A stretch of DNA of 64,000 nucleotides, taken from contig JAWHQI010000001.1 in the NCBI GenBank assembly GCA_033032865.1, positions 1,324,001-1,388,000 of the forward strand, given 5' to 3'. This document shows positions 25,151-58,692 of the stretch, one piece after another. Position 1 is the stretch's first letter. The number at the start of each line of letters is the position of its first letter. Position numbers and translations under genes: made by a program. Origin of the DNA: Dactylorhiza incarnata. Its lineage: Eukaryota; Streptophyta; Magnoliopsida; Asparagales; Orchidaceae. The notes under the pieces were generated by a model, which saw only the letters and a list, made by a program, of their open reading frames with translations, did not search any database and was not told the origin of the DNA.

Positions 25151-25345
25151 AGGTGTGTTTGGTTCGGCTTATTTGCTCCGGTGAGTTTGGATAAAAACGT
25201 CATTGTCATACCAAACATTTTATGCTTATAACTAGTTTCTTTTCTTGATAATGATAGTAACATTTGTCATACCAAACATACATTCTATGACAATGACGAC
25301 TTTGTCCAAACTCACCGGAGCAAATAAGCCGAGCCAAACGAAGCC
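25151..25345. mobile_element. Tourist-like (PIF/Harbinger) MITE, 195 bp
   Basis: It is flanked by TAA on both sides (25148-25150 and 25346-25348). The arms are long inverted repeats: GTTTGGTTCGGCTTATTTGC with TCCGGTGAGTTTGG on the left, and their complement CCAAACTCACCGGAGCAAAT with AAGCCGAGCCAAAC on the right. The central 80 bp also pair in part (ATGACAATGACG and CGTCATTGTCAT). It sits about 170 bp past the PUB stop codon, so it may lie in or near that gene's 3' UTR. Confidence 0.85.
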
Positions 25346-26310: not shown

Positions 26311-27680
26311 CTAGAAGACGGGGCCACCCAAAGGAAAAAAAAGTGAGGGAGCAACCAAAAGAAGAGGCTTCTCTGCTTATGAATTATTATCCTCATTTTC
26401 GTGGATTCCACAGATGTGAAATTACAAAAACCTCTCATGTAAGTTTATATTTCATAACATCTATGCACAAAAGGACCCCTGAAAATTTACTCAAGGGGGT
26501 CTATTTTTTACATGGTTATGAAATGTAAACTTATAAGGGGGGTTTTTGTAATGTCAAAAATAAAAGTCCTGCAACCTGTAATTATGCTAACTTATAGGGA
26601 AAGTTTTGGTAATTATTCCTTTAGAATAATTACACTACACTGAGCGTATCATATTGTTAGATAGTGCATACACTATGCTAGTAATGTATGCGCTTAGATC
26701 TGCAGTGCACGCGATGATGAGAAATGTTAGTCACATTGTCTTATTCGCTATATTAGTAGCATAAACGATATACTTGCATAACATATATACTAGTAATATA
26801 GCATATACAACAAGATTGCGAAGTAAGATTGAAGAGGTATTTCAAGTCAAGAATAGCCTAAGGTAAGGGTCTCCTCACATTATATTTTTGAAGAACAATA
26901 AAAACTAGTGAACTATAATATAATTTCCCGCATGGTAGCAATATAAAAGTTTCGACATAGTAAAATCATCTTTTAGACCTTGAAATCATCCATGACCTCT
27001 TACATCAGCCAGATATATCAATGAAAACGAACTTTGTCTTCATAACTTCAATCGGTTCATCAACACCAGCTGAGTCTCTAAAGGTGAAAAAAATCTAATG
27101 TTGAAAATGTATATAATGAAGCATTTATTTATTTCCTAATCATTATGACGCAAGTATATGGTCGGGGGCGAATATACCGAGATATCAATAAAAGGCAATA
27201 ACGAAGCCTTAGATAAAATACTACAATTTTCTTATTTGTTATTGATAATATAGTGTATACGTAACAATATAGCATATATGACGGCCATGGGACTAACAGT
27301 TTCATAGCTATTCGCTATGAGCGAATACGCTATCTATCCACGTGTCACAATATGATACGATTATACAGCTTAAGGAAAATGCGCCGTGCCTAGCATAAAT
27401 TTACTCTAAATTTTAACTCTCCCTCTAATATAATTATTTCCTAATATATTCTTCATGCCTTAATGGATCACTCTAAATCTTCCTTTAATATAATTATTTC
27501 ATAATTTATTTTTTTCTATTCTACCGCATATCAAACTTAACATTCTCGTGTGATCAACTTAGATATTGACAAACATTTTTATCAATTCATATAAAAGCTC
27601 GCTGGATTACTTGCAAATATAAATTCTTACCACTTTTAAATGATCATATGCCAAAAGTTTAGACTGAAAAAACTTCATAC
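26311..27680 (-). other. PUB intron, 1370 bp
   Basis: Donor CAG|GTATGA (27681/27680) and acceptor TTCTAG (at 26311) obey GT-AG rules, and the flanking exon phases match. The intron is AT-rich and holds a foldback element at 26421-26552. No exon-like frame is visible in the rest. Confidence 0.85.
26421..26552. mobile_element. Foldback/MITE hairpin in PUB intron
   Basis: ATTACAAAAACC, TAAGTTTATATTTCATAACA and the ACCCC block on the left are mirrored by GGGGGTC, TGTTATGAAATGTAAACTTA-like sequence and GGTTTTTGTAAT on the right, giving an imperfect hairpin with arms of about 60 bp. The words ATTTCATAACAT and ATGCACAAAA also occur in the hairpin at 58449-58588, so both belong to one family. Outer ends and target duplication are not clear. 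Confidence 0.7.
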
Positions 27681-28777: not shown

Positions 28778-29243
28778 CTGATTCGACAAGGGGAATACAG
28801 TGTCAGTTCCTTAGATACATAATGTCATCTCATCAAATATATTGTAAAGCACAACGAAATTTAAGTTCAAGTGAAATTATTTTTTAAACTATAATATATG
28901 TGTATATATATTGATGGGGATCACCGGCAGTTTCAGCCGCAGGACCAACAATAGAGACCAGACCACCGCAGGAAAAAGAAGACATTGTTTGGACTGGAAG
29001 CAACCGAAGACGTCGATTTTTGCCTCCGTTTGCAGTCAGCAATCGACACTTGGGATATGGTAAAACAACATCATATGATTCTGTGATGGGGTAAGTGGGT
29101 GGGATTGGGATAAGGTTAAGCAATGAGCTATGGGCGTTGGACCGGTTGATTGGGGTCGGGATAGGGTTGAACATGTTTCAAGTTCCCTTTGACAGGACCG
29201 GTAGAATCGGGTCGGGATCGCGATCCTGAAGATCCTAAGATCA
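28778..29243. other. Intron sequence flanking the Sirevirus, GATCC-rich edge
   Basis: No coding sequence was found here, including the missing PUB N-terminus. The last 60 bp are rich in GATCC and CGATCC words (GGGATCGCGATCCTGAAG). The same style continues at 46056-46185 beyond the Sirevirus, so the element inserted into this repeat. Confidence 0.6.
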
Positions 29244-30308
29244 TGTTGGAACAACCCTATTACTGATTTGGGCTAGGATCACTATCTGCTGACTAGGATC
29301 AAGTTGACCCCAATGTATAGTAAATGGGTCAAGAGTTTAGGCTGTTAGAACTCAAGAAATCATTAATGTTCTGCGTTCGACGAACTGCATACTGCGTTCG
29401 ACGAACGGCTTGCTCTCTGCGTTCGACGAACGACTTACATCCTACGTTCGACGAACGGCATGCTCCTGCGTTCGACGATCTTCAGTCTCAGCGGCTCAGC
29501 AGTCGACGATTTTGCTCAGTTCAGCGGTCGACGAACTCAGCTCTGCATTCGAAGAATAACTATCAGATGTTCAGATCGACGAAATATCTTCACAGCTCAA
29601 CAAATTTAATTCTTCTAGCCAGATTCATTTGAGGTCGACGAACTCAACATTGTGTTCGACGAAAATCTTGAGATCGAGGAAAATTTCTCTACAGCAGATT
29701 CATTTCAGACAGATTATATTATTCATTCTCTGAACTCAGATCTCTTCTGCAACGGTTCTATTCTTCCAGACAAGTAAGGATAATATATTTCATTTTATTA
29801 TTTCGAGATTATAGCCGTTGACATTTCTCGAAAAAGGACATTTCATGGAAAAGGAAAGAGATATAAGGCGTGTCAGAATTATGTTTCCCAGATATATTTA
29901 TTCCTTAATTCAAGGGATTTGATTTTCAAATATTATCAAAAGAAAAGGGAAGAAGATATACAGTATTACTTCCATAGTTTCACGACAGGAACATTACAGA
30001 ACATAACACAAAATAGCTGTACAGGAAGAGAAAGAAAGAAAGTTACAGGAAGAGAAGAAACATAAGAAAGCATTCACAGATCTTCTTATTCCTCAAGCAG
30101 CACTAATTTACTGAGAACAACTTCATCAACAATACTCTCTCAGTCATCAGCTGCAAGATCAGATCTTCAAAAGAGCAACAAAAATCTGAAGAGCTTATTC
30201 TTCCAGATTAATCACTTATCATGGCGTCGCCTAGGCGACGCCTAGGCGTCCAGTCGGCCGATTGAAAACAAAGCGAAAGCCGCCTTATTTTTTTTAAAAT
30301 TAGGGGTA

Positions 30309-30549
30309 TAGACAGCGGTTTATATATAAACCGCTGTCTATTTGTACAATAGACAGCGGTTTATATATAAAAAATAGACAGCGGTTTATATATAAACCGC
30401 TGTCTATTGTAACATTACGTGTACAATAGACATCGGTTTATATATAAACCGCTGTCTATTGTACAAATAGACAGCGGTTTATATATAAACCGCTGTCTAT
30501 TATACACGTAATGTTACAATAGACAGCGGTTTATATATAAACCGCTGTC
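30309..30549. repeat. Left palindrome array of the composite element
   Basis: Six TAGACAGCGGTT half-sites (one changed to TAGACATCGGTT) alternate with five AACCGCTGTC half-sites. Each full palindrome is GACAGCGGTT, a TATATATA-centred spacer, then AACCGCTGTC. Linkers are TATTGTACAAATA or contain ACATTACGTGTACA. The array lies just inside the left end, where transposase-binding repeats are expected. Confidence 0.9.
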
Positions 30550-31015
30550 GAATAGGGATATAAACGAAAGAATTTACCCCGTCTTTTTACTTTTTACCGT
30601 CGCTAGATCGTTTGCTGCTCTGTGCGAAAACCCTAAAGGCGATTTCTCCTCGACAAGTCGACATCTTCCTTAGGTTCGTTTTTACGATTTTTTTCTTGCT
30701 CTTCTAATTTCTAAGTTGGAATGGTATAATTTCTAAGTTGAATAGTATAATTTCTAAGTTGAATGATCATTTCATAATTCATATTTTCCTACTTCCTAGT
30801 TCCTAGTTCCTACTGCTTATATAGTTCTGTATTTATATGTGTGATTGACTTAATGTGTGGTAGACCGTAGACTAGTATTACCTCAATATCATTGCGGTTT
30901 TATATGAATTTTGTTTAGGTTTTTTGGATGGTTTAGATTTTTTTTAGGGCTTTCTTATTACAGGAAAATGACTGATAAATGATCCTTATCAAAGTCAACA
31001 AGAGGCTTCACTAAA

Positions 31016-33790
31016 ATGATGAGATTGAATAAGCTTAGAGCAGAGGGGAAGAAGATTTTTATTTCTGTTAATGATGATGGCCACATTATTCCCGGGCCTG
31101 AGTGTAATAAATTGATGAGTCTATTTGGTTCTCTTGTGAGGATGTATGTTCCAATCACATATGCTAGATGGAAGGAAGTTGATAAAGAAATTAAAGATCG
31201 AATATGGGAAGAAGTAAATGTACGTAATTTTGTTATTAGCGATTAAATATAAGTTTTTTTTAGTTATTTATTAATATTATTGTCTATTATTTTCAGAATT
31301 ATTTTGATAATGTTGATGGTGTTCGTCATGAATTGATGAAAAGCATGGGTGAAAGTTGGCGGTCGTGGAAATCTAAACTTTATGTTCATTACGTAAAGGA
31401 TGTTGATTTGGAGCATCGTTACAATGTTCCAGTCAAGTATAATTTTATACCTCTTGAAGATTGGAAAATTTTTGTTGACAATCACACCACTCCGGAAGCT
31501 ATGGTTATGTGTTCTTATTTCTTAAAAAACTCAATGTTTTATTGCATTTACTAACTTTGTAAGCATTATACTCTAAGTATTAACAAATATTTATTTGTGT
31601 AGGAGAAAAATAAACTTAACACAGAGAGAGCAAAAGCGCAGAAGTCGTTTAATACTACTTCCAGAATGGGTTATTCTAGATTAGAAAAAAGAATGGTATT
31701 AGTATTTACTATTTAGTTCTCTACTTCTCTCTTGTATATTTTATTTTAAAAATGTGTTTTTTCAATAATTTAATTGATAATTTATTTGCATTTTATTGTC
31801 AAGATTGAACAAGGTGCAAATGCACAAATTTCACGTGCGGAGCTATGGAAAGCCAGTCACAAATGAAAGACTGGTGAATACATTAGTCAGGATGCAGCTG
31901 ATTTGGCAGCTAAAATTGTATGTTTAAATTATCATTTCATCATTTGTAAATTTTCATTTCATCAATCATCATTTGCATTAATATTTATTGATTTCACTTA
32001 GGATGAGGTCTCGAGCCAAGAGTCTGCTGCAAGTGCAACAGAGTCACAGGTAAAGGAACATCCGGGCAGAGTAAGAGCTGGTGGCAAGTTTTCCACCATT
32101 AAAAGTTTTTTCAAGAATAATAAGCGGAAGGAGAGCACAATAGCTCATATTGAAGATGTGGAATCTATTGTTCAAGAAAGATTGAGCCAACAACAAGAGT
32201 TATGGAGGCAAGAACAACAACAACAACAACATGAGCAGGCCTTTCAGAGCTAACTCTACCAACAACAAGTGCATCAAGCAGAGATGGCTAGCATGAAAAA
32301 TCAAATCGATGAACTTATGCGCATGTTTGGTGCTAGAACCGAAACGTCTCAGGTATTATTATGTATTTATGTTTAATTATTTATACTTTTATGAAATATC
32401 ATGTTACTTATCTTTATACTTTTATTTATAGTTACCTTGTTATTTTTGGTTTGTCAGCAGACACTTGTATTAGCCTCACAAGGGCCTGAAACATCACATC
32501 AACCCGAAACGTCACATGGGTGTTTACCGTCTTCGGTATTATAAATTTATAATTAATTTTTTTTATTTTTATAATTAGTATTTCGTCTTCGCCTCTTCGG
32601 TGTCCGAAATACTAAATACTAATTATTTTTATTTCCACAGAATGCCAATGATGTCATTGTCCTGTTACCCAATTTCATTTCTACGATGGAGAAACAAGAC
32701 AAAATAATAACTCTTGTATTAGATCCAAATGTATTTGGAACTAAAGAAACAACACGTACATACTTTGAAGCTTCTGAGTTGTTTGATTTTCTTAAAATTG
32801 AACAAATTGGAGTTAAACATCATATTATCATGTATTGGGTGAACAATAATTATCAAATATTACAAACCTAAGATTTTTAGTTAATATATATATTGATTAT
32901 GATTTATGAATTTACATGTTTTTTTACAGGTACATAGATTCACAACTAAAGAAGTTTAGATACACAAGAAATGTATATTTTCATAATCCGACATCTATTT
33001 TTGCTTTTAATGATAAGTTTGCCAAGGAGCGTATTAAATCACGAAGACAAAAGCTAAAAAATAGGCTTGCTCAACTTCAACCGGATTCTTTATTATTTTT
33101 GCCATATCATAGAGAGTAAGTATCAATAATTATTGCTATTTTTTATTGTTGTTCAAGTTATTACTTATTAATGATTTATTGATTTTATTTGTTAATTGTT
33201 ACACAGAATACATTGGATGTTGGCCATTATTGAAAAAGATAACAATATAATTTATTGGCTTGATCCTTTAAATAAGGACATTCGTGACGATATAAAAAAT
33301 GTCATTGCACTGTAAGTTTATTAATTAGTATTTTCCCTATTTGAAATTTAGATTCTGCTGTAAACTAATTTTTTTTAATATTTTATGAAGTGCATTGAAG
33401 GATTTGGCAAATAACCGGAAAGTCAAATTTCATAAACCAAAGGTTTTACAGTGGAAGCCGGTAAGCTATAACCTATATGACTATATGAGTATATGTTAAA
33501 TAATTATTTTCATATTTACAATTCTAAATTCTAATGTTTACTATTTATTTATTTATTTAGTGCCCTAAACAACCGGATAATATTCAATGTGGGTACTATA
33601 TCATGTGCTACATGATTGACATAGTTGATGCTCTTAGAAGTACGACAATGTCATCAGGGGTAAGTTAACTGCATATAGTTTCATACATGATAAATGATAA
33701 TAAATGTGTTGAATTTATTTTAACAAATATTTTTGTTTTTATTAGAGATCTATGATGTAGTGGATGAATTTTCGCCTGAGAAAATAGATA
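31016..33790 (+). pseudogene. Transposase_24 (Ptta/En/Spm-like) fused to Ulp1-type cysteine protease, multi-exon, with stops
   Basis: Exons can be followed by GT-AG borders: 31016-31219, 31297-31503, from 31603, then further small exons. The first part has the plant Ptta/En/Spm domain: WKEVDKEIKDRIWEEVN, then NYFDNVDGVRHELMKSMGES, KNKLNTERAKAQKSF, ISRAELWKASHK and ISQDAADLAAKI. A Gln-rich coiled-coil-like region follows. The C-terminal part is an Ulp1/SUMO-protease fold with the catalytic His (IHWMLAIIEK), Asp (IIYWLDPLN) and Cys (NIQCGYYIMCYM). In-frame TGA (31863) and TAA (near 32250) break it. Such proteins are known from CACTA elements; here it lies upstream of a hAT transposase on the same strand. 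Confidence 0.8.
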
Positions 33791-34061
33791 ATATGTAAAA
33801 TAAGATTTGTGATTATATAATCACTACATGTGCGACATGAAAAACGATTGAAAGTTAGAAAGTAGAAACATATATTGTTTTATTGCTAAACAAATGTAAT
33901 TGTGTAATTGTGTATGTGTTAGTGTGTTGCTTTATACTTATGTAGAAAACTATAAATAGAACTGTATGAAAATTGTAATTGTAATTGTTTATGGAAATTG
34001 ATGTATGCACTATTTGTGTAACTCTGAATTTTATAGCTCTTGTTTCAGTTGTTTGTGAAAG
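33791..34061. other. Spacer between the two composite-element genes
   Basis: An AT-rich 270-bp gap separates the Ulp1 end from the hAT start. It contains no element termini, so the two genes do not look like separate nested insertions with intact ends. Confidence 0.5.
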
Positions 34062-36611
34062 ATGGAAGACCAAAACATCAACAGTCTTGCTCCATCCGTT
34101 GATAGCAATGAGCTTGACCCAAAAACTGATCCTAAAAGAAAAACAAAATTCAAAGGATCCTGGATGGAAGTATGGACATTGGCCTGACATAAAGGATAAA
34201 AATATCATTAAATGTAATTTGTGTGATAAAGTATATAAAAGTGGGATCAAAAGATTGAAACAACACTTATGTGGCGGATATGGAGATGTGACAGTATTTT
34301 AAGACTACTTCAGAAATAGCAACTGAGATGTATGCAACTTTAAATGATAAAAAAAAGGACAAGGTGAATTTGACAGCTGATGATGATAATGTAAGTGAAC
34401 AAGAAATAGAGCGAGCAGGTTCTCAAAATGTATCTCCGGCATTATATACAACTAAAAGTTCATTTGTCCCAAGTTCTGGGACAAGTGCCAAAAAGAGAAA
34501 ATTACTCCACCTTCCACAAAAACGGGGCCCTATGGATGCTCACGTAAGACGTGCTCCCGAAGATGTAGTTGATGAAAGACGTGCTAAAGGTCCTGCACAA
34601 ACTACTATTGAGATATGTTTTAGATCTCCTGAAGAGAAAAAGAGAGTTGATGGCTATGTTGCAGATTGGTTCTATGAATGTGGAATTCCTTTCAATGCTG
34701 CAAAGACACAAAGTTTTGAAGTAATGCTTGAAGCAGTTGGACAGTATGGGCCTGGTTATAAAGGCCCTAGTTATCATGATTTACGAGTCCCTTTGTTAAA
34801 AAATACAAAAGAGAAAGTTAAGGAGATGAAAACAAAGTATCGGGAGTATTGGAGGAGATATGGTTGCACTCTTATGTCAGATGGTTGGACGGACAGGAGA
34901 GGGAGACATTTGATCAATTTCCTAGTTAACTGTCCAGAAGAAACTTATTTTATGGGTTCCGTAGATGCATCCGGTCATATTCAAGATGCGACAATGCTAT
35001 CAGAGTTGCTTGATAGTAAAATAACCGAGATAGGAGCAGATTGCGTTGTTCAGGTAACTTTTTTTGGTTATTTTAATTTTCATATTTCATGTTTAATAGT
35101 CTACAACTATAGACTATAGAAGTATAGAACTTTACATATATAAAAAGTTATGTTGTATGCAGGTAGTGACTGACAATGCCTCCAATTATAAGGCAGCTGG
35201 TAAAATTTTAATGGAGAGAAGGCCCACATTATTTTGGACTCCTTGTGCAGCTCATTGCATTGATCTAATGCTAGAAGATATAGGCAAGCTGCAACAAAAC
35301 AAAATGGTGATAAGAAAGGCAAGGATGATTACAAATTTCATCTACAGGCACACTCGTTTACTTGATGCAGTAAGGACTACTATTGGTGGAGATCTAGTCT
35401 GGCATTCAGTGACTAGATTTGCAACATCATTCCTTACTCTACAAAGTGTGCTTAAGCATGAGGAGAAGTTGAAATTATTCTTTGTGTCGCCTTCATGAAA
35501 TGCTGCTAATCTGGCAAAAACCGAAGCCGGAAAACAAGTTGTTGCAGCAATACTTTCAACTGTTTTTTGGAATGGAGTAAGAGATTGCCTAAAAGGAGGA
35601 AAGCCACTAATAGTCGTGTTGCGATTAGTAGATGGTGATGAAAGACCAGCTATGCCTGAAGTATATGTGACAATGGAAGAAGCCAAACAAAAGATCAAAG
35701 ATCATTTTGATAATAAAGAAAGATTATATAAAAAAATTATTGACATTGTTCAAAATAGGTGGACAAATCAAATGGAGCAACATTTGTATAAGGCGGCTTT
35801 GTTTCTAAATCCAAATAAATATTTTGAATATGAGGAAAAACATCCCGATGATACTTGAAAATTTCAAGATGCTTTCAATGATGTTATTGCAAGACTAGTG
35901 CCCGATCAACAATTGTAAGACAAGATTGCAGAGCAAGGCACTAACTATAAAGCATCTCGAAATAGTTTTGGAAAGCCTATGGCTATTAGGCAACGAACCA
36001 CCTTAAATCCAAGTGAGTATTGATTACGTTTTTATTTTTTCTTAAGCTACTTATATGTTATACTAATTTATTTTTATCTTAAATAAATAGTGGATTGGTG
36101 GGGTGCACATGGAGAACCGAATGTTGACCTTACAAATGTAGCATTGTGCATACTTGGCTTATGTTGTTCTTCTTCTAGTTGTGAGCGCAACTGGAGTACT
36201 TTTGAGTTTGTAAGTATACAAAAATTTAATTTAAAATTGAACTTGTTTTATCCACTAACAAATAACAAGTTTGCAACTATCTTGATTCAGATTCACACAA
36301 AGAAAAGAAATAGATTGGAGCATCAAAGGCTTAATGATCTTGTATACATCCAATACAATCATCGTCTACAAGCACGATTCCAAGAAAGACGTGAAAAAGG
36401 AAGAAATTACAACCCTTTAGTGCTTGATGAGCTAGATTGGAGTAGTGAGTGGATGATGAACAAACCGGAGGAAGCTTTAGTTTATGATGATGATGATCTC
36501 ACATGGGAAGCTGTAGAGAGAGCTATTGGGACTGTGGCTCGAAATTTACGAAGTGGTGCTCAAGTTAACCTTGAACAAATATTTGAAGGGGATTTGGGGA
36601 TGAAGATCTAG
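34062..36611 (+). pseudogene. hAT transposase (BED finger, DUF659, dimerisation domain), decayed
   Basis: A start at 34062 gives MEDQNINSLAPS; a frameshift near 34150 leads into a BED-type finger (IIKCNLCDKVYKSGIKRLKQ, HL) and another near 34298. Then GIPFNAAKTQSFEVMLEAVG, CTLMSDGWTDRRGRHLINFL and VVTDNASNYKAAGKILMERR form the DUF659/RNase H-like core, with an intron at about 35055-35160. CAAHCIDLMLEDIGKL follows. After another intron come the dimerisation motifs WWGAHGEPNVDLTNVALCIL and SSSCERNWSTFEF, then HTKKRNRLEHQRLNDLVYIQ. Stops occur near 35498, 35858 and 35920. The domain order is complete for a plant hAT transposase, but this copy cannot be translated whole. Confidence 0.85.
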
Positions 36612-36998
36612 ATCATTTTAGCGTTGCAAATGATGATGAAGATCTTGTTGATAATTACGGGTAAATGACGAGTACCTCAAACCAACTAAGTTCATGCAAT
36701 GCCAAGGACGATTTACTAGATGATGATTCTATTTGATCTAAAAAATTATTAATGCTACATTGCTACTGTGTATCAGTGTATGATGATCGTAACATTTTGG
36801 TATTGAGTGAAATGGTTGTGAATCTTGTGATTGTCAATTTGACATTATATATATTGATTCTAAAATCTGAATGTTATTTCTATTTGATTCTGAATGTTAT
36901 GATGCTGAATGAAAAAAAACTGTGTATCTGAATGCTGAATGACTTATGGAGTTCTGGGAGTGTTGGAAATTCTCTTTCAGTCTTTTAAAAAAAAAGGG
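36612..36998. other. 3' flank of the hAT gene
   Basis: AT-rich noncoding sequence with no ORF; it probably contains the transposase 3' UTR before the right palindrome array. Confidence 0.5.
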
Positions 36999-37246
36999 GA
37001 CTATAGACAGCGGTTATTTCAATAACCGCTGCCTATAGTCCCCTGGCAGTGACTATAGACAGCGGTTATTTCAATAACCGCTGTCTATATTCACTGGCAG
37101 GGGACTATAGACAGCGGTTATTTCAATAATCGCTGTCTATAGTCACTGGCAGGGGACTATAGACAGCGGTTATTTCAATAACCGCTGTCTATAGTCCCCT
37201 GCCACTGACTATAGACAGCGGTTATTGAAATAACCGCTGTCTATAT
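36999..37246. repeat. Right palindrome array of the composite element
   Basis: Five palindromes, each TATAGACAGCGGTTATT, a short spacer and AATAACCGCTGTCTATA, are separated by CCCCTGGCAGTGACT-type linkers. The outer half-site GACAGCGGTT is identical to the left array, but the spacer is ATTTCAAT instead of TATATATA. One unit has CTGCCT and one ATCGCT as point changes. Confidence 0.9.
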
Positions 37247-37936
37247 TCTTCATTTGTTTTAAAAAAAATTTTAAATGTCGCCTAGCATTTGCTCGCCTTA
37301 TTGTCGCCTAGGCGTCCGCCTTGTCGCCAAGGCGTCAAGGCGGTCGGGGCTCGCCTTGGTACGCCTTGACGTCATGAAAAGAACATTCAACAGAAAGCCT
37401 TGGTACGCCTACAGGAAGATCAATTTCTTTCAACAGAAAGCTCCATCCTCAACTGTCAAGCATTTTATATCAGACAGAGGAGTTATACAACATCATCAAA
37501 TCCACTAGAGTCTTCTCTCTGATTGTTGACAGAGAGAACATTCAAACCCTTCTTATCCCCTCTTGTACAGGGTTATAACTCCCTTCAAAAGTTAACCCAT
37601 TGGTGGCAGGGCACCTGATCAAAAACCTGTGGTTTGGTTAGAGCACTTGATCAAAAGCTCACTTGATGTGTGGACACCTGAACAAAAACACCTTGGTGAT
37701 AGGGCACCTGATCAAAAACCTAGTGCATCCTACCAAGTGTGGTGGAAGAGTAGACGTACCCAGGTTTATTGGGGAACTACTATAAAAATCTTTGTGTCTC
37801 TGTGCTTGTGATTTTCTGTGTTGTTGTGTTGTGCTGATTTTTTTTATTTAGTTTTTATAAATCACTCTATACACATATATATATCACTAATTTAATTCCG
37901 CTATAAAATTAAGGGAAAAGTTTTTAATACTCTATT

Positions 37937-37959
37937 CCCCCCCCCCCCCCCCCCCCCCC
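37937..37959. repeat. Poly-C tract, 23 bp
   Basis: A run of 23 C sits near the 3' end of the 5' LTR, where the 3' LTR has only about nine (CACCCCCCCCCTCTAGAG). It may be slippage during reverse transcription, genomic slippage or an assembly error. Confidence 0.8.
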
Positions 37960-37993
37960 TCTAGAGTAAATCTAAGATCTAAACTCTCCTTCA

Positions 37994-38166
37994 ATTGGTA
38001 TCAAAGCGTGGTTGATTATATTAATCACTTTCAACTGATATCAATTGCACTTTCAATTGGTATCAGAGGGTAGTTGATTTTTACAGGCTAACACCTGAAT
38101 CATAAAGATCAATTAGATTTTAAATTTTTCTAGAATTTTATTTTATTTTATTTTTGTTAAAAACTC
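37994..38166 (+). other. Sirevirus primer binding site and gag leader
   Basis: ATTGGTATCAAAGCGTGG directly follows the LTR end, matching the initiator tRNA-Met site used by copia elements. Similar phrases (TTGGTATCAGAGGG, CTGATATCAATTGC) repeat within the next 70 bp, perhaps a local duplication of the site. Confidence 0.8.
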
Positions 38167-40215
38167 ATGACACAGAACAAAGAATATTCTAGCACAAGAC
38201 CTCCTATGTGCAATCTCAGTAAGTTTGCACTATGGAAGGCAATGATTAGGATGTACATGAATTCTATTGATGAGGAAATTTTGAATGTTATTTTGACAGG
38301 GCCTCCAACACCTACAGCAACAACTAGTGCTGAAGCGACAACTAACAATAATGTTGTTCCACCTCCTGAGTGGACTGAAGCCCAGAAAAAGCAAAGAAGT
38401 GCAGATGCAAAAGCTATGAACATTCTGGCACAAACAATGTCTGATGACATTTTCTAGAAAGTGGTGGAATGCACCTCAGCGAGAGAAATCTGGATCTCTC
38501 TCAACAATATGGTTGAAGGATCAGCTGATGAAAGAAAGGACAGAAGATCCCACCTTATTTCTCAATATGAGAATTTCAAAAAGGGAGAATCTGAGACAGT
38601 AGCTGATATGTATAACAGGCTCAACCTCATAATCAATGAGCTGAAGACTTTGGACAAAGTGATCTCCATCACTGAGATCAATGATAAGATCCTTATGTGC
38701 TTCCCCAGCACATGAGACTCTAGGATCTGGCCAATCAAGGAAGCCAGAAGCCTTAATGAGATCTCAACTGAGAGCTTGTTAGGCAAACTCAAATCCTATG
38801 AGCAGCTTATCAAATCTAAGGAAGCTGAACAATCTACTTCATCTCCAGCATCCAAGAAGGAGAGAAGCATAGCTTTTCAAGCTGAAGAAGAAGAAAAGGC
38901 TCCAAAAGATGAGGAGTTCATAAGCCTTTTAGCCAAAAGGTTCTACAAGATGGCTAAGAAGGACTTCAGAAAGAAGGACTCCAGATCAAGGGAAAAACCA
39001 AGGTATGATAAGTCAAATCCTAAAGAAATTATTTGTTATGGCTGCAGGAAACCTGGACACATTCTGCCAGACTGTCCAGAGAATCAGAAGAAGGAGAAGA
39101 GAAAAGAAAAGGAAGATAAAAGACACTCCAGCAAGTCTTCCTCCCACAAACACAAACACGAGGGAAGAGGATTTGTAGCAGAAACTTGGAGTGAAACTGA
39201 ATCAGAATCATCATCCAGCTCATCTGATGATGAAGAAGAATCAAAGGAGAATGATCAATGTCTGATGGACATTTATGACTCAAGCAGTGAGTCAGTAAAT
39301 GCATCTTCATCCAACTCTTCTGATGATGAAGATGATGAAGAAAAAAAGAATTTCTGCATGATGGCTATCAATGCCTCAGCAAACAACTCAGATGAAGAAG
39401 AATCAGAATCAGAAGCTGACAATGATGCAGATCAGGTAATCTCTAATTTTGATTTCAATTCAATTGAATTCAAAGATGAATTCAAAGTTCTTTGCTTAGA
39501 CTTAATAAAATCTGAGAAGGAAATAATCACTCTAAAAAATAAGCTAGCTGAAATGAACAAATTAAGTGAAGATAATGTTATTCTTAAGAAAGAATTGAAT
39601 GCCTCTAGAGAACATATTATTCTCATTGAGAATAAACTTTCTGAGGCTAAGAAATTTGAAGAATCCCTAAATGGGAGAAACATCAAACTGATGGACATTA
39701 CAAGCACAGTAAATGCCAGATTAAGTGACAAATTAGGCTTGGGTGCATCATCAAGTGAGTTACCTCTGATTAAGAAGAACATACTGTCTACACCTATAAA
39801 ATTCATTTCTGCTAAGAGCAAAGAGGTTGTAGATGCAAATAAAAATATTTCAAGTAAGACTGTTAAGAATAAAGGAATTCAGCAGAATTCGTCGAACGGA
39901 GCTCGACGAAAGGAATTCACTTCGTCGAACGGAGCTCGACGAACTCTGAAGACAGATTTCCTGTATAGTTATTATTCGAACGGCGCTCGACGAAAGCATG
40001 TCCATTCGTCGAACGGCGATCGACGAACTCAGCCCAGTTCGTCGAACGGAAATTATACAGAAAATCTGAAAAATTCTTATTCTTCACATACTAACAATCC
40101 TTTCACTGAATGGATAATACCTCCAAGGAGATATCATCCACAAGGTTATAAGGACCAACCTGAAATGTCTTTTATTTTAGAGTTTTGTGGTGTAATACAA
40201 AAGGACCCAAGGTAG
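38167..40215 (+). pseudogene. Sirevirus gag, two nonsense codons
   Basis: The frame starts MTQNKEYSSTRPPMCNLSKF and runs through the gag core (ARE-IWISLNNMVEG, RRSHLISQYENFKKGESETV, INELKTLDKVISITEINDKI), a CCHC knuckle (CYGCRKPGHILPDC), long Ser/Glu/Asp-rich acidic blocks and a coiled-coil-like stretch near 39450-39650. Near the C-terminus SSNGARR is repeated, encoded by TTCGTCGA/TCGACGAA hairpins. Stops at 38455-38457 (TAG) and 38713-38715 (TGA) interrupt an otherwise continuous frame. Both fit single C-to-T or G-to-A changes from Gln or Trp codons. The frame ends at 40215 and pol continues in another frame. Confidence 0.9.
39888..40052 (+). repeat. TTCGTCGA...TCGACGAA hairpins inside gag coding sequence
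   Basis: Four near-palindromes and one half copy occur in 165 bp. Each has arms TTCGTCGA and TCGACGAA around a 7-nt loop such as ACGGAGC or ACGGCGA. They encode SSNGARR or SNGDRR repeats. The same core is repeated after pol and in the LTRs. Confidence 0.85.
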
Positions 40216-40249
40216 TCTGGGTCAAAAACAACTAGTTTATTTTTCTGTT

Positions 40250-43200
40250 TTGAAGGTACACAGCTATCCAAGCAAGAATGAACAATGGTATTTGGATAGT
40301 GGCTGTTCAAAACACATGACAGGAAACAAGGCCAACCTGAACAACTACAAGGCAAAGCTTGGACCCAATGTGATCTTTGGAGACTCCAACTGTGGACAAA
40401 CCAAAGGCTATGGACAGATCAAAGTTGGAGCAGTGACCTTCAAAGAAGTAGCCCATGTCAAGGGTCTGAAGCACAACCTCATCAACATAAGTCAGTTATG
40501 TGATGAAGGTTATCATGTAACTTTCAATCATTCCTTATGTCTTATTACCAATAATAAAAATATTATTGTATTATCTGGTATTAGACATGGAAATATTTAT
40601 TTAGTCAACTTTGACTCTGCCAATTCTGATATTTGCTTATTCAATTCTATAAGTAAAACAAATGAATTATGGCATAAAAGGCTTGGACATATTAACCTTA
40701 GAACTATATCTAAGTTTTCTAAGGACAATCTTGTTAGAGGACTGACTTTTGGTACATACAAGAAGGAAGGACTCTGCAGGGCTTGTCAATTAGGTAAGCA
40801 AACTAGAAGTAGTTTTAAATCTTTATCCAAGAGTGATTCACCTAGGATTTTATATTTGCTGCATTTGGACCTTTTTGGACCTACTGCAATACAAAGCCTA
40901 GGAGGGAAGCATTACTCTCTAGTGATTGTAGATGACTTCTCAAGATTCACTTGAGTGTTCTTTCTTAGGAACAAGTCTGACACCTTCAGTGTTCTGACAG
41001 ACTTTCTCAGGTCCATCAAGATTGAGTACTCTACTGTAGTTGCATTGATCAGAAGTGATCATGGCACTGAGTTTGAGTCTCTTCTGATGAAAGAATTCTG
41101 TGGAAAAGAAGGGATCAGACAGTGTTTCTCTGCTCTTAGAACTCCTCAACAAAATGGGGTAGCTGAAAGGAAAAATAGAACCCTTATTGAATCAACAACT
41201 ACATTGCTTGCTGATGCTCACTTGCCACTCTCTTTTTGGGCGGAGGCAGTGAACACAGCAAATTATGTGTTGAATAGAAGCCTGATACATAAACTTAAGG
41301 GCAAGACTCCCTATGAATTACTTAAGAATAAAAAGCCTAAGGTTAACTATTTTAAGATATTTGGATGTAAATGCTATGTGCACAACAATGATAAGAAGTA
41401 TCTCAGGAAGTTTGAAGCAAAAGCTGTTGAAGGCATTTTCCTTGGATATTCTCTTTCTAGTAAGGCATATAGAGTTTACAACAAATCTACTCTTAAGATA
41501 GAAGAGTCCATGCATGTATCTTTTGATGAGACTAACATGTTACTTGAGGAGAGGAACACCACCTCTACCAAAAATATTTTGCAGGTACCAGCTCTATGTG
41601 AAGAGCTAAATGGACTAGATCTACAGAAAGAAGAATCACTACTTCCATCAACTCAAAATCTTGAAGATAGTGAAGAAGAAGATCATCCAGATCTTGCTGA
41701 CAGCTCAAATCAAGTGACAGCTGAACAAATTCCTCAAGTGGATATCATTGCTGAACCCACTCCAACTGTTGATCACATCACAGTTAGAGATCATCCAATA
41801 TCACAAGTGATTGGAGATATTTCAGCAGGTGTTCAAACAAGACATCAACTACACCAAAATCAGATGCACACTTGTTTCCTATCACAAGTTGAACCTCAAA
41901 CCATAAAAGATGCAGAACAAGATCCAAACTGGATTCTTGCAATGTAAGAAGAGCTCAACCAATTTGAAAGGAACAAGGTATGGGATTTGGTTCCAAGACC
42001 AAAAGGCCATCCAGTTATTGGCACCAAGTGGGTCTTCAGGAACAAGCTTGATGATCAAGGCAACATAGTCAGAAACAAAGCAAGATTGGTAGCTCAAGGA
42101 TATTCACAGGAAGAAGGAATTGACTATGATCAGACCTTTGCTCCTGTTGCAAGACTTGAAGCTATAAGGATCTTTCTGGCCTTTGCTGCATTCAAGAAAT
42201 TCAAGGTATATCAAATGGATGTAAAGAGTGCATTTCTAAATGGAGACATCAATGAAGAAGTCTATGTAGAACAACCACCAGGTTTCATCTCTCCAACTCA
42301 CTCATCTTATGTATTTAAGCTTAATAAAGCTCTCTATGGTCTCAAGCAAGCTCCTAGAGCATGGTATGAGACCTTAGCTAGTTTTCTTTTAGAGAATAAC
42401 TTCTGTAGAGGCATAGTTGATAAAACCTTATTTTTCAGGATACATAAAAATCAAACTCTACTAGTTCAAATATATGTAGATGATATTATTTTTGGCTCTA
42501 ATGATTCAAATTTATGCAAAAGATTTTCTAACCTGATGCAATCTAAATTTGAAATGAGTAGTATGAGAGAATTATCATACTTCCTTGGTCTTCAAGTGAA
42601 GCAAACTCCAAATAGCATATTCATATCACAATCCAAGTATGCTAACGAATTAGTGAAAAGGTTTGATATGTCTGATGCTTCCACCATGAAAACACCCATG
42701 CCCTCAAATGCTGTTGTTGATGCTGATGAATCAGGGAAACCTGTTGATCAGAAAGTATATAAAGCAATTGTTGGCTCTTTGCTTTATTTAACAGCAAGTA
42801 GGCCTGATATAATGTTTGCTACTTGTATTTGTGCTAGGTTCCAAGTTAACCCCAAAAAATCTCATCTAATTTTATTAAAAAGAATTTTGAGATATATAAA
42901 GGGTTGTCCTAATCTAGGACTTTGGTATCCAACAGCATCAGAATTTGAATTAACTGGATTCTCAGATTCTGATTATGCTGGATGCAGAGTAGACGGGAAA
43001 AGCACATCAGGAACTTGCCAGTTCCTTGGTGATAGGCTTGTGTCTTGGTTTTGTAAGAAACAAACATCTGTGTCTACATCAACAGCTGAAGCTGAATACA
43101 TAGCTGCAGGCAGTTGCTGCTCATAAATATTGTGGATACAAAATCAGCTCCTAGACTATGGTGTCAATCTAAATAATTCAATTATAATTTGTGATAATAC

Positions 43201-43423
43201 TAGTGCAATATCTATAGCACAAAATCCAGTTCTCCATAATAGGACTAAACACATAAAAATTAGGCATCACTTTATCAGAGATAATGTGGATAAAAATAAA
43301 ATTTGCCTACAATTCATCTCTACTAATTTGCAAAGAGCTGATATTTTCACCAAGCCCTTGGATGAAAAGAAACATATTTTCTTTATAAATCAGCTAGGAA
43401 TGATAGATGGAGATTCAATCTGA
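40250..43423 (+). pseudogene. Sirevirus pol: protease, integrase, reverse transcriptase, RNase H; three nonsense codons
   Basis: Domain order is complete for Ty1/copia. Protease: WYLDSGCSKHMTG. GAG pre-integrase: LWHKRLGHINLRT and CRACQLGKQTRSSF. Integrase: HLDLFGPTAIQSLGGKHYSL, RSDHGTEFES, TPQQNGVAERKNRTL, with the D-D-E pattern visible. Reverse transcriptase: [51 protein letters not shown] and [10 protein letters not shown]. RNase [46 protein letters not shown]. Stops occur at 40952-40954 (TGA where Trp is conserved), 41945-41947 (TAA for Gln) and 43124-43126 (TAA for Gln). Otherwise it reads through, so the insertion is moderately young. Confidence 0.95.
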
Positions 43424-43439
43424 TAAAAATTAAGTTTTC

Positions 43440-43575
43440 TACTTACTCAATCTCTTCATCGAACTGAGATCGACGAAATAAAGTTTTTCGTCGAACGGAG
43501 ATCGACGAAGTCATCAAGTTCGTCGAACCGAGATCGACGAAAACTCTTTTTTCGTCGAACCCAGTTTTGATGAAG
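43440..43575 (+). repeat. TTCGTCGA hairpin cluster after pol
   Basis: Four units such as TTCGTCGAACGGAGATCGAC followed by GAA lie just downstream of the pol stop, with the arm and loop design of the gag copies but changed loops. Here they are noncoding, so the motif is kept apart from any protein constraint. Confidence 0.85.
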
Positions 43576-43699
43576 CTTTTATTTTCTGGCCTGTCATCAT
43601 TATCAAATCTTTTTTATTTTAGCTGAATGCCTACAGAAATTGCTTCTCTTTCCAGTTCCTTTGCACTTGATCTCTATTTTATTTTGCAGGAACAGTAGC

Positions 43700-44474
43700 A
43701 ATATAACGATGACATCCTTCGCTACCTCCTCAAAAGTCCCTTCTTCTAGGGGCCTAGCTCCAGGTCTTCCTGAAACTAGGCAGGGGGAGATGTATTGAAG
43801 AAGCTCCTTGTTGTCAGGGGGAGATACTTTCCTTTTTGACAGGGGGAGTTATTTATTTTCTGAAGATGCTCAAGCTTCAAGAGAAATGTTTTCAGTTCTA
43901 TGAAGAACTCCATATGATGCAATTTTTGCTCAGGGGGAGATGTTCTATGAACTAGGCAAGGGGAGAAAGCTGAAGAAGCTCCAGTCTCAGGGGGAGATGC
44001 TCTCAGGCTAACATATTTTATGAAAGAAGGAAATGATGCATGAAGAAGCTTCATATATTGCAAATTCAGAATACAGCTTTTGATATAGAAGAAGCAACAG
44101 ATACAGATTCAGATTATGACAGATTTAGGAGAAGATGTTTTGACAAGATTCAAATTCTGATTGGTAGCAAAGCACATTGAGAAATATTTGTTTTTATGTG
44201 TTAAGAGCAGATTCAGTTCAGATCAACAATTCAGAAAGCTGAAATATAGCAAATACAGTTCATACAATATCAGATTTCAGAATTCAGAAAGCAGATTCAG
44301 AAAAGACAAAAGGTTTTTATTAGTTTTATTTTCATTGAAATGTTTCAGAACTCAGAATATTATTTATTTTATATCTGATGAACTATTTAAAATATATCAG
44401 ATATATATATGTTCTGTTGTTTTGTTTGTTTTTAATTTTTGTCAAATAGTGTCATAACCCAAATAGAGGGAGAT
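43700..44474 (+). pseudogene. Env-like vestige with multiple polypurine tracts
   Basis: From about 43710 the sequence encodes TSSKVPSSRGLAPGLPETRQ followed by GEMY, matching SSRGLNSGLPEARKGEMPY in the chimeric ORF at 17441-19894. Frames then break. GGGGGAG motifs recur at about 43783, 43817, 43842, 43933 and 43990, with a GGGGAG at 43961, and the PPT AAATAGAGGGAGAT adjoins the LTR at 44461-44474. Several translate as QGEM phrases. Multiple PPT-like motifs before the 3' LTR are a described Sirevirus hallmark. Almost the entire env-like ORF is deleted. Confidence 0.8.
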
Positions 44475-46055
44475 TGTTGGAACAACCCTATTACTGATTT
44501 GGGCTAGGATCACTATCTGCTGATTAGGATCAAGTTGACCCCAAGGTATAGTCAATGAATCAAGAGTTTAAGCTATTAGAACTCAAGAAATCATTCAGGT
44601 TCTGCGTTCGACGAACTGCATACTGCGTTCGACGAACGGCTTGCTCTTTGCGTTCGATGAACGGCTTACATCCTGCGTTCGACGAACGGAATGCTCCTGC
44701 GTTCGACGATCTTCAGTCTCAGCGTCTCAGCGGCTCAGCAGCTCAGCGGTCGACGATTTTGCTCAGTTCAGCGGTCGACGAATTCTTCAGTTCGACGAAC
44801 TCAGCTCTGCATTCGAAGAATAACTATCAGATGTTCAGATCGATGAAATATCTTCACAGCTCAACAAATTTAATTCTTCTAGCCAGATTCATTTGAGGTC
44901 GACGAACTCAACATTGTGTTCGACGAAAATCTTGAGATCGACGAAAATTTCTCTACAGCAGATTCATTTCAGACAGATTATATTATTCATTCTCTGAACT
45001 CAGATCTCTTCTGCAACGGTTCTATTCTTCCAGACAAGTAAGGAAAATATATTTCCTTTTATTATTTCGAGATTATAGCCGTTGACATTTCTCGGAAAAG
45101 GACATTTCATGGAAAAGGAAAGAGATATACGGCGTGTCAGAATTATGGTTCCCAGATATATTTATTCTTTAATTCAAGGGATTTAATTTTCAAATATTAT
45201 CAAAAGAAAAGGGAAGAAGATATACAGTATTACTTCCATAGTTTCACGACAGGAACATTACAGAACATAACACAAAATAGCTGTACAGAAAGAGAAAGAA
45301 AGAAAGTTACAGGAAGAGAAGAAACATAAGAAAGCATTCACAGATCTTCTTCTTCCTCAAGCAGCACTAATTTACTGAGAACAACTTCATCAACAATACT
45401 CTCTCAGTCATCAGCTACAAGATCAGATCTTCAAAAGAGCAACAAAAATCTGAAGAGCTTATTCTTCCAGAGTAATCAGCTACAGGAAGATCAATTTTTT
45501 TCAACAGAAAGCTCCATCCTCAACTGTCAAGCATTTCATATCAGACAGAGGAGTTTTACAACATCATCAAATCCACTAGAGTCTTCTCTCAGATTGTTGA
45601 CAGAGAAGAACATTCAAACCCTTCTTATCCCCTCTTGTACAGGGTTATAACTCCCTTCAAAAGTTAACCCATTGGTGGCAGAGCACCTGATCAAAAACCT
45701 GTGGTTTGGTTAGAGCACCTAATCAAAAGCTCACTTGGTGTGTGGACGCCTGAACAAAAACCCCTTGGTGATAGGGCACCTGATCAAAAACTTAGTGGAT
45801 CCTACTAAGTGTGGTAGAAGAGTAGACGTACCCAGGTTTATTGGGGAACTACTATAAAAATCCTTGTGTCTCTGTGCTTGTGATTTTCTGTATTGTTGTG
45901 CTGTGCTGATTCTTTATTTAGTTTTTATGAATCACTCTATACACATATATATATATATCACTAATTTAATTCCGCTATAAAATTAAGGGAAAAGTTTTTA
46001 ATACTCTATTCACCCCCCCCCTCTAGAGTAAATCTAAGATCTAAACTCTCCTTCA
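44475..46055 (+). repeat. Sirevirus family A 3' LTR, 1581 bp
   Basis: It starts TGTTGGAACAACCC after the PPT and ends CTCTCCTTCA. Its 5' part carries at least eight GTTCGACGAAC or GGTCGACGA motifs (44600-44945). CACCTGATCAAAAACC repeats lie at about 45679-45795. It lacks the 7.2-kb insertion found in the 5' LTR and so gives the pre-insertion reference. Confidence 0.95.
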
Positions 46056-46185
46056 GATCCGGATCGCGATCCCAGTCGTAGATGTGCCGATTTAGATCCT
46101 AGGCAAGATCCAGATTGATTTATAAAATATGGATCGTAGAATCGTAGGATCCTACAATCCGGATCACGATCCTGATAACCATGCC
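46056..46185. repeat. GATCC-rich repeat, target of the Sirevirus
   Basis: Words such as GGATCGCGATCCC, GGATCCTAC and ATCGTAGGATCC repeat on both strands. The left flank (about 29195-29243) has the same composition, so the two form one interrupted repeat. Confidence 0.6.
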
Positions 46186-49233: not shown

Positions 49234-50073
49234 TTAAAGAGAACAAAATAATAAGTTCAGTCGATTTAAATCTATATAATACATATAGATGATTCGAACG
49301 ATATATCGAAAAAAACACGAATATATCGGCCTATAATTTACAAAAGGACAATCTATTGTACCCTTCCGATCTGTCCATGCATCGATCATGATAGTGCAGC
49401 CATTCAATTTGCAGGTCTGCATGAATGTGCCCAATATCTCCTTCGTCCTCTCCACCTCCATTCATAAAATTTTCTCTCTCAACTCATAAATGTAGGCATC
49501 TTCATCCCAGGTCTGCATAACCCAATGACATGGGCCATCTGCTGGAAGGAGGAATTATATATGGCATTAAACGGGATCCCGTTTTCATATGCGCATCTAC
49601 CTATGTACACGTCAGCAACATCCCTGGCTTTCTTTTTGTACTTGCTCTCTATCGTGCTCTGTTGGGAATCTTTTTTCCTTGGTAGACTTCGTACTTGAAT
49701 GAACAAAATAGTCCATTGGACCCTTGGAACCTGTGCTCCTACGTATAACAGTCTCCTCTAATTCATCATCGTGTACTCCAACTACCACCTCATTCAAGCT
49801 TGCTTGTAACTTTGAACTCTTAGCTCTCTTACTTTCCAAGTTAGAGTTTAGGACCGACTCAGCCTTCGCCTTAATGTCGGCGGGAACTTGAGGGCATGGC
49901 TTAACATTACCCTTCCACCCAACCAAGTGATGCTTGAAACGTGTAATTCCACCCTTCACTGTCTGCTTATAGTAGTTGCATTTAATTCGGTGTGTCGTTT
50001 GCAACCAACTTCTCACCAAATGCCCATAACGGATCTCCACCAATTGGTACCAATGATACGGGCACCCCACTAG
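49234..50073 (-). pseudogene. hAT transposase N-terminal half (BED finger, DUF659 start)
   Basis: From 50070 the minus strand reads HRIKCNYYKQTVKGGITRFK and HHLVGWKGNVKPCPQVPADI, a BED zinc finger whose second Cys is now Tyr (CNYY). Then LNEVVVGVHDDELEETVIRR and GPMDYFV follow, and after frame changes CAYENGIPFNAIYNSSFQQM (49600s) and CTIMIDAWTDRKGT (about 49400). The C-terminal dimerisation domain is missing. Frame changes near 49690 and 49470 and the mutated finger show it is dead. Confidence 0.75.
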
Positions 50074-58588: not shown

Positions 58589-58692
58589 TCTATAATATAT
58601 ATATGTATATATATGTATATATTTATATATATATGTATATATATGTACATGTACATATATGTATATGTATATGTATATATATATGCCCTTGA
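58589..58692. repeat. TATATG/TACATA microsatellite
   Basis: A run of TATATATG, GTATATATAT and ACATGTACAT words about 100 bp long directly follows the foldback hairpin. Confidence 0.85.

What the first reader, a model, noticed from the sequence alone, without database searches (positions are those of the whole stretch)
30215..37408. Two-gene composite DNA transposon mixing hAT and CACTA parts
One insertion contains, from outside in: GCCTAGGCG-type hAT-like ends, CACTA-style palindromic subterminal arrays, then a Transposase_24-Ulp1 gene and a complete-order hAT transposase gene, both on the plus strand with only 270 bp between them. The hAT-like ends lie outside the arrays, so this is not simply a hAT element dropped into a CACTA element. 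No TNPD-type CACTA transposase or CACTA termini were seen. It may be a hAT lineage that acquired a DNA-binding/SUMO-protease module along with its binding sites. I know of Ulp1 genes in CACTA and Mutator-like elements, but not in hAT.
Basis: partly seen in the sequence, partly recalled or inferred. Interest (0 to 1): 0.88.

Follow-up and report, generated by a model that had tools for sequence, protein, structure and literature searches.

The report
hAT transposon carrying CACTA-like Ulp1 module
A 7.2-kb insertion in a plant retrotransposon holds, inside one set of mirrored ends, both a hAT-type transposase gene and a SUMO-protease gene of a kind reported in other transposon classes; it is likely one mobile unit, and the second gene would help it escape silencing by the plant.

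Summary
The other LTR of the same Ty1-copia element is an empty site and shows that about 7.2 kb of foreign DNA lies in the 5' LTR, 30215-37408. It holds a Transposase_24-Ulp1 gene and a BED/DUF659/dimerisation hAT gene, both on the plus strand; six-frame Pfam scans show no other transposase. The same order on both sides, with both genes inside, argues for one element rather than a chance nest. The likely right end is 37381; 37382-37408 looks like repair filler.

Not shown: an 8-bp target duplication, a hAT-type TIR, or a second copy (genome search did not complete). That the ends are hAT ends is inferred from the only transposase present. I read the Ulp1 gene plus arrays as a predicted TnpA/VANC-like anti-silencing module. 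Papers I saw place Ulp1/C48 genes in MULE, CACTA and Crypton elements; none I saw placed one in hAT. New variant of a known kind, resting on one decayed copy.

The parts
30215..30228 (+). Left terminal inverted repeat, CTTATCATGGCGTC; begins exactly where LTR homology stops
   Evidence: 12 of 14 match to the right copy; 42 of 20000 random trials reach 12 or more; break point
30228..30286 (.).
   Evidence: 5 motifs in 30215-30300, 0 of 5000 shuffles as many
30287..30299 (+). A/T tract ATTTTTTTTAAAA, mirrored at the right end
   Evidence: 13-nt match; 5000 random pairs reach at most 10, 5000 shuffles at most 12
30308..30549 (.). Left array of palindromes of GACAGCGGTT, 11 units
   Evidence: folds with z -27.9 as single-stranded DNA
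30983..33798 (+). Gene 1: Transposase_24 plus Ulp1 (C48) SUMO-protease domain, about 12 exons with hand-set junctions; in-frame stops at 31864 and 32251; start codon not secure
   Evidence: Pfam, Ulp1/SENP5 alignment, stops
34063..36611 (+). Gene 2: hAT transposase (zf-BED, DUF659, Dimer_Tnp_hAT), 4 exons with hand-set junctions; in-frame stops at 35496, 35856, 35916 and two frameshifts in the first exon
   Evidence: Pfam, 116 plant and algal relatives, alignment, stops
36999..37248 (.). Right array of palindromes of GACAGCGGTT, 10 units, 52-bp period
37257..37269 (-). Right copy of the mirrored A/T tract
37279..37367 (.). Right cluster of AGGCG/CGCCT motifs
   Evidence: 9 motifs in 37265-37408, 0 of 5000 shuffles as many
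37368..37381 (-). Right terminal inverted repeat, CTTTTCATGACGTC on the minus strand; likely right end of the element
37382..37408 (.). Likely repair filler: TTCAACAGAAAGC as in the LTR at 37429 and GCCTTGGTACGCCT as in the element at 37353
   Evidence: both strings located
29244..37993 (+). 5' LTR of the host Ty1-copia retrotransposon, split by the insertion
44475..46055 (+). 3' LTR of the same retrotransposon; the empty site is at 45478-45480

Best explanation
The insertion is likely one DNA transposon, about 30215-37381, whose mirrored four-layer ends enclose both a hAT transposase gene and a Transposase_24-Ulp1 gene; the hAT enzyme likely moved it, and the Ulp1 protein is predicted to bind the palindromic arrays and lift silencing. 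Shown: the empty site, the two genes, the mirrored ends, the matched arrays, and no other transposase domain in six frames. Inferred: that all parts came in one step; that the BED finger reads the AGGCG clusters and the hAT enzyme cuts at the 14-bp TIR; that gene 1 acts as TnpA does on Spm subterminal repeats (activation with loss of DNA methylation) or as Ulp1-bearing VANC proteins do on their own motif arrays; that the protease part removes SUMO from silencing factors or from the transposase. This copy cannot make either protein whole, because both genes carry stops.
For: Empty site. Both genes by Pfam; Ulp1 active-site positions kept in the alignment to SENP5 and Ulp1. Ends mirrored in the order TIR, AGGCG cluster, A/T tract, array; end-to-end alignment score 255 against a maximum of 100.5 in 100 random pairs, much of it from the arrays. 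All 21 array units lie in the two arrays, which flank both genes. No inner hAT termini above controls. Similar decay: 2 stops in gene 1 and 3 in gene 2, against about 2.8 expected in total from half the LTR divergence and 5.6 from the whole (rough). Precedents for the mechanism: TnpA activation with demethylation (PMC10398659, passages), VANC binding to motif arrays with loss of methylation (PMC5735166, passages), Ulp1-bearing VANC genes (PMC13317346, passages).
Against: One copy only; no second copy could be sought in plant DNA (13 unanswered genome-search runs). No 8-bp target duplication: ATTAATCA against AACATTCA agree at 5 of 8, and the combined TIR+TSD sum of 15 is reached in 32 of 200 random controls. 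The TIR does not fit the hAT consensus that I recall. Of 116 relatives of gene 2 none lists an Ulp1 or Transposase_24 domain, and none matches the gene 1 region. The one relative of gene 1 found, P0117, shows no hAT part. The A/T tract is low-complexity and was picked after looking. Binding, cutting and anti-silencing are untested.
Confidence: 0.55

Rival explanations
1. A chance nest: a CACTA-like element that lost its tips, a hAT gene and an outer AGGCG-ended element came together in several insertions.
For: Transposase_24 and two-orientation subterminal arrays are typical of CACTA elements (PMC2613891 passages); nests are common in plant DNA (recalled); the hAT and Ulp1 genes are not found together in any of 116 + 1 protein hits.
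Against: No CACTA tips at the array borders within 2 mismatches; no inner hAT termini above controls; TIR, cluster, tract and array are mirrored in the same order on both sides; similar decay of both genes.
Confidence: 0.25
2. One element, but the ends belong to another or unknown superfamily, and the hAT gene is a passenger.
For: TIR CTTWTCATGRCGTC does not fit the hAT consensus that I recall; no 8-bp duplication.
Against: The only transposase domains found in six frames are the hAT ones; short TIR followed by many copies of a short motif is a layout that I recall from hAT elements such as Ac.
Confidence: 0.13
3. The segment was pasted into the LTR by break repair and is not a transposition product.
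For: Scrambled right junction with copied filler and no target duplication.
Against: The left break falls exactly on a 14-bp sequence repeated inverted near the other end.
Confidence: 0.07

Closest known systems
Plant hAT elements (DUF659/BED lineage; grapevine Hatvine families)
   Same: Transposase domains and order; hAT elements of grapevine (Hatvine-6) also carry captured sequence (PMC2528002, section 10)
   Different: Extra Transposase_24-Ulp1 gene, long palindromic arrays, TIR unlike the recalled hAT consensus, no 8-bp duplication seen; grapevine hATs of high-copy families have 8-23 bp TIRs and 8-bp duplications
CACTA (En/Spm) elements with Ulp1, such as Cactavine-2, -3, -4, -5 and -13
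   Same: Transposase_24, Ulp1 and subterminal arrays in both orientations; TNPA recognises such arrays (PMC2613891 passages; PMC2528002 section 10). I recall a near-identical motif, GACAACGGTT, for Ipomoea Tpn1; the one search for it found no paper that prints it
   Different: No CACTA tips, no TNPD/Tnp2 domain, no 3-bp duplication, hAT gene instead
Kaonashi/VANDAL MULEs with VANC-Ulp1 (KIU) genes
   Same: Ulp1 gene and dense short motifs in one transposon; anti-silencing reported for VANC (PMC5735166 and PMC13317346, passages)
   Different: MULE transposase; no MULE transposase or VANC domain (DUF1985, DUF287) turned up in Pfam scans here
MarCry-1_FO (Crypton fused with a Mariner element) and C48-bearing Cryptons
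   Same: Precedent for a fusion of superfamilies and for C48 peptidases in transposons (PMC3212892, passages)
   Different: Other superfamilies, fungi and oomycetes; MarCry rests on four copies with TIRs and TA duplications, here there is one copy

Membership tests
hAT | BED finger, RNase H-like core (DUF659) and C-terminal dimerisation region | tested here: met
   acidic positions D273, D334, E646 kept (catalytic role recalled)
hAT | Short TIR of the YARNG type (consensus recalled) | tested here: not met
   TIR is CTTATCATGGCGTC / CTTTTCATGACGTC
hAT | 8-bp target-site duplication | tested here: inconclusive
   ATTAATCA / AACATTCA, 5 of 8; right junction appears rebuilt by filler
CACTA (En/Spm) | CACTA termini | tested here: not met
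   no match within 2 mismatches at either border
CACTA (En/Spm) | TNPD/Tnp2 transposase | tested here: not met
   no such domain in six-frame Pfam scans
CACTA (En/Spm) | Subterminal arrays of a short motif in both orientations, and a Transposase_24 protein | tested here: met
   21 motif units in two arrays; PF03004 E 4.1e-9 in gene 1
KIU/VANDAL MULE | MULE transposase and VANC domain (DUF1985) | tested here: not met
   not among Pfam hits; gene 1 was also scanned spliced
Transposon-borne anti-silencing system | Protein binds its arrays and lowers their methylation | not testable with these tools
   needs bench work
Real mobile family | Independent full-length copies with the same ends and content | not tested
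   The genome search did not answer in 13 tries; no second copy within the window; the array pattern had 0 matches in viral contigs

The most novel reading that the evidence does not exclude
A new transposon architecture: a hAT transposase joined in one unit with a TnpA/SUMO-protease anti-silencing gene and that gene's own binding arrays, which would make hAT a further superfamily, after MULE, CACTA and Crypton, to carry an Ulp1 module, here together with its DNA targets.
Probability: 0.4. Interest if true: 0.75.

Novelty: new variant of a known kind. Interest (0 to 1): 0.58.

Why it matters
Transposons of several superfamilies carry Ulp1 SUMO-protease genes, and the precise role of the Ulp1 part is unknown (PMC13317346, passages). 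If a hAT element took up such a gene together with its arrays, the Ulp1 module would look like a portable anti-silencing kit rather than random gene capture. Gene and putative targets sit in one 7-kb unit, so the idea can be tested directly.

Tried and rejected
Second copies. Self-comparison of the window found none. The array pattern in viral contigs gave 0 matches; a hAT relative (P0001) in viral contigs gave 2 pattern matches, neither confirmed. The genome search 'own' answered 'busy or cannot be reached'. No plant genome collection was at hand.

Fused gene models. A joint query of both genes returned 116 proteins, each with DUF659 and none with an Ulp1 or Transposase_24 domain listed; none of the 116 matches the gene 1 region by tblastn. 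Gene 1 alone, and its protease part alone, each returned the same single protein, P0117 of the orchid Platanthera zijinensis: 69% over 62 aa and 76% over 37 aa, inside a gene model named geranylgeranyl transferase. The search needs shared 5-residue words, so absence is weak evidence.

Target duplication. In a grid of TIR plus 8-bp duplication the top sum is 16, which is the GCCTAGGC palindrome itself and is reached in 5 of 200 random controls; the 30215/37381 pair scores 15, reached in 32 of 200. So the duplication is not supported; the TIR rests on the separate test anchored at the LTR break.

Rejected: CACTA element proper (no tips, no TNPD); plain hAT nested in a CACTA (no inner termini); right end at 37408 (bases after 37381 resemble LTR and element copies).

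Papers. Ten searches. I opened passages of PMC2528002 (also section 10), PMC2613891, PMC5105172, PMC3212892, PMC13317346, PMC8903248, PMC5735166 and PMC10398659; the rest I saw only as listings. None that I saw reports an Ulp1 gene in hAT; most subscription papers are missing, so this is not proof that it is unpublished. PMC9016345 (KIU systems) is not held; I know of it through PMC13317346.

Not done: no phylogenetic tree, no structure prediction, no Rfam scan.

Full report
Where it sits. Self-comparison shows a Ty1-copia element from 29244 to 46055. Its 5' LTR is split and its 3' LTR (44475-46055) is whole. Homology stops at 30214 and resumes at 37409; the empty site reads AATCA-G-CTACAGG, with the G unmatched. 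A related third LTR near 16.1 kb is also empty at this place. The two LTRs differ by K2P 0.033 over 1546 aligned sites, so the insertion is at most that old if the LTRs evolve evenly.

Genes. Gene 1 reads across about 12 exons on the plus strand, with junctions set by hand. Spliced, with stops as X, it gives Transposase_24 (E 4.1e-9) and Peptidase_C48 (E 5.8e-7), both above the curated cut-offs; unspliced it gives no significant hit. Its protease part aligns to human SENP5 (E 1.9e-6) and yeast Ulp1 (E 0.0014) with the His, Asp, Gln and Cys positions kept (their catalytic role is recalled). Gene 2 has zf-BED, DUF659 (E 5e-60) and Dimer_Tnp_hAT and resembles Hermes transposase weakly (E 0.0008). 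It belongs to a widespread lineage: 116 relatives, mostly flowering plants, best 59% identity to Telopea speciosissima. In an alignment with 9 of them D334 and E646 are invariant and D273 nearly so (catalytic role recalled). Six-frame scans show no other Pfam domain at E 0.01. Both genes are broken: stops at 31864 and 32251 in gene 1; stops at 35496, 35856 and 35916 and two frameshifts in gene 2. Five stops compare with about 2.8 expected from half the LTR divergence and 5.6 from the whole (rough, since the script took the least interrupted frame of each exon). Both genes may thus have been whole on arrival; this is consistent, not proof.

Ends. Read inward, the left side gives CTTATCATGGCGTC, a cluster of AGGCG/CGCCT, ATTTTTTTTAAAA, then palindromes of GACAGCGGTT. 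The right side, read inward from 37381 on the other strand, gives CTTTTCATGACGTC, a longer AGGCG cluster, ATTTTTTTTAAAA, then palindromes of the same motif. The TIR agrees at 12 of 14, its left copy being fixed by the LTR break; 42 of 20000 random trials do as well. The clusters hold 5 and 9 of the window's 60 motifs. The 13-nt tract match exceeds all 5000 random pairs (maximum 10) and all 5000 shuffles (maximum 12), but it is an A/T run picked after looking. All 21 units of the array motif lie in the two arrays, 11 left and 10 right. Folded as single-stranded DNA the left array has z -27.9. The end-to-end alignment scores 255 against at most 100.5 in 100 random pairs, much of it from the arrays. 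This mirror, with both genes inside, is the main argument for one element.

Junction. Bases 37382-37408 hold TTCAACAGAAAGC, also at 37429 in the LTR, and the start of GCCTTGGTACGCCT, also at 37353 in the element. I read this as filler from break repair, which would have erased the right target duplication. The data neither show nor exclude an 8-bp duplication: ATTAATCA and AACATTCA agree at 5 of 8, and the TIR+TSD sum is not above random controls.

Why probably not a nest. CACTA tips are absent at both array borders within 2 mismatches. Around gene 2 the best TIR-plus-duplication sum is 15, inside the range 14-16 of 12 random controls. Copies elsewhere are the real test, and the genome search failed 13 times. 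Against a stable pairing of the two genes: 0 of 116 gene 2 relatives list an Ulp1 or Transposase_24 domain, and the one gene 1 relative, P0117, has no hAT part; proteins are poor witnesses of neighbouring genes.

How it would work. TnpA recognises Spm subterminal repeats (PMC2613891, passages) and activates Spm in step with DNA demethylation (PMC10398659, passages). VANC proteins of VANDAL elements bind arrays of a short motif and cause loss of methylation (PMC5735166, passages). Some VANC genes carry an Ulp1 part whose precise function is unknown (PMC13317346, passages). Gene 1 with its arrays has the same layout. I therefore predict an anti-silencing and end-pairing role for gene 1, with the hAT enzyme cutting at the TIRs. 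The arrays could also feed hairpin RNA and attract silencing, which would give such a gene a use. None of this was tested.

Known and new. Grapevine work reports ULP domains in MULE and CACTA families and captured sequence, not ULP, in hAT (PMC2528002, section 10). Some Cryptons carry C48 peptidases, and a Crypton-Mariner fusion rests on four copies (PMC3212892, passages). None of the papers I saw reports a hAT-Ulp1 element. The find is a new variant of a known kind, provisional until a second copy is seen.

Noticed in passing
window 49237-50031 (-): A second, different hAT (BED/DUF659) gene fragment: most of the fetched hAT proteins match it by tblastn. No AGGCG cluster lies near it.
   Followed up: partly
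window 17441-19894 (-): An 817-aa frame of a second copia-like element starts with Pol_BBD and GAG-pre-integrase domains and then runs on for some 600 aa, rich in Ser and Pro, without any Pfam domain.
   Followed up: no
window 29238-29243 and 46056-46060: The host copia element is flanked by GATCA and GATCC, an imperfect 5-bp target duplication.
   Followed up: no
window 25157-25339, 26417-26556, 58616-58683: Stretches that match their own reverse complement (76-85%), possible MITE-like palindromes.
   Followed up: no
P0117, residues 89-185 (Platanthera zijinensis): Part of an Ulp1 gene close to gene 1 has been taken into a gene model named geranylgeranyl transferase, suggesting a related element in orchids.
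   Followed up: partly
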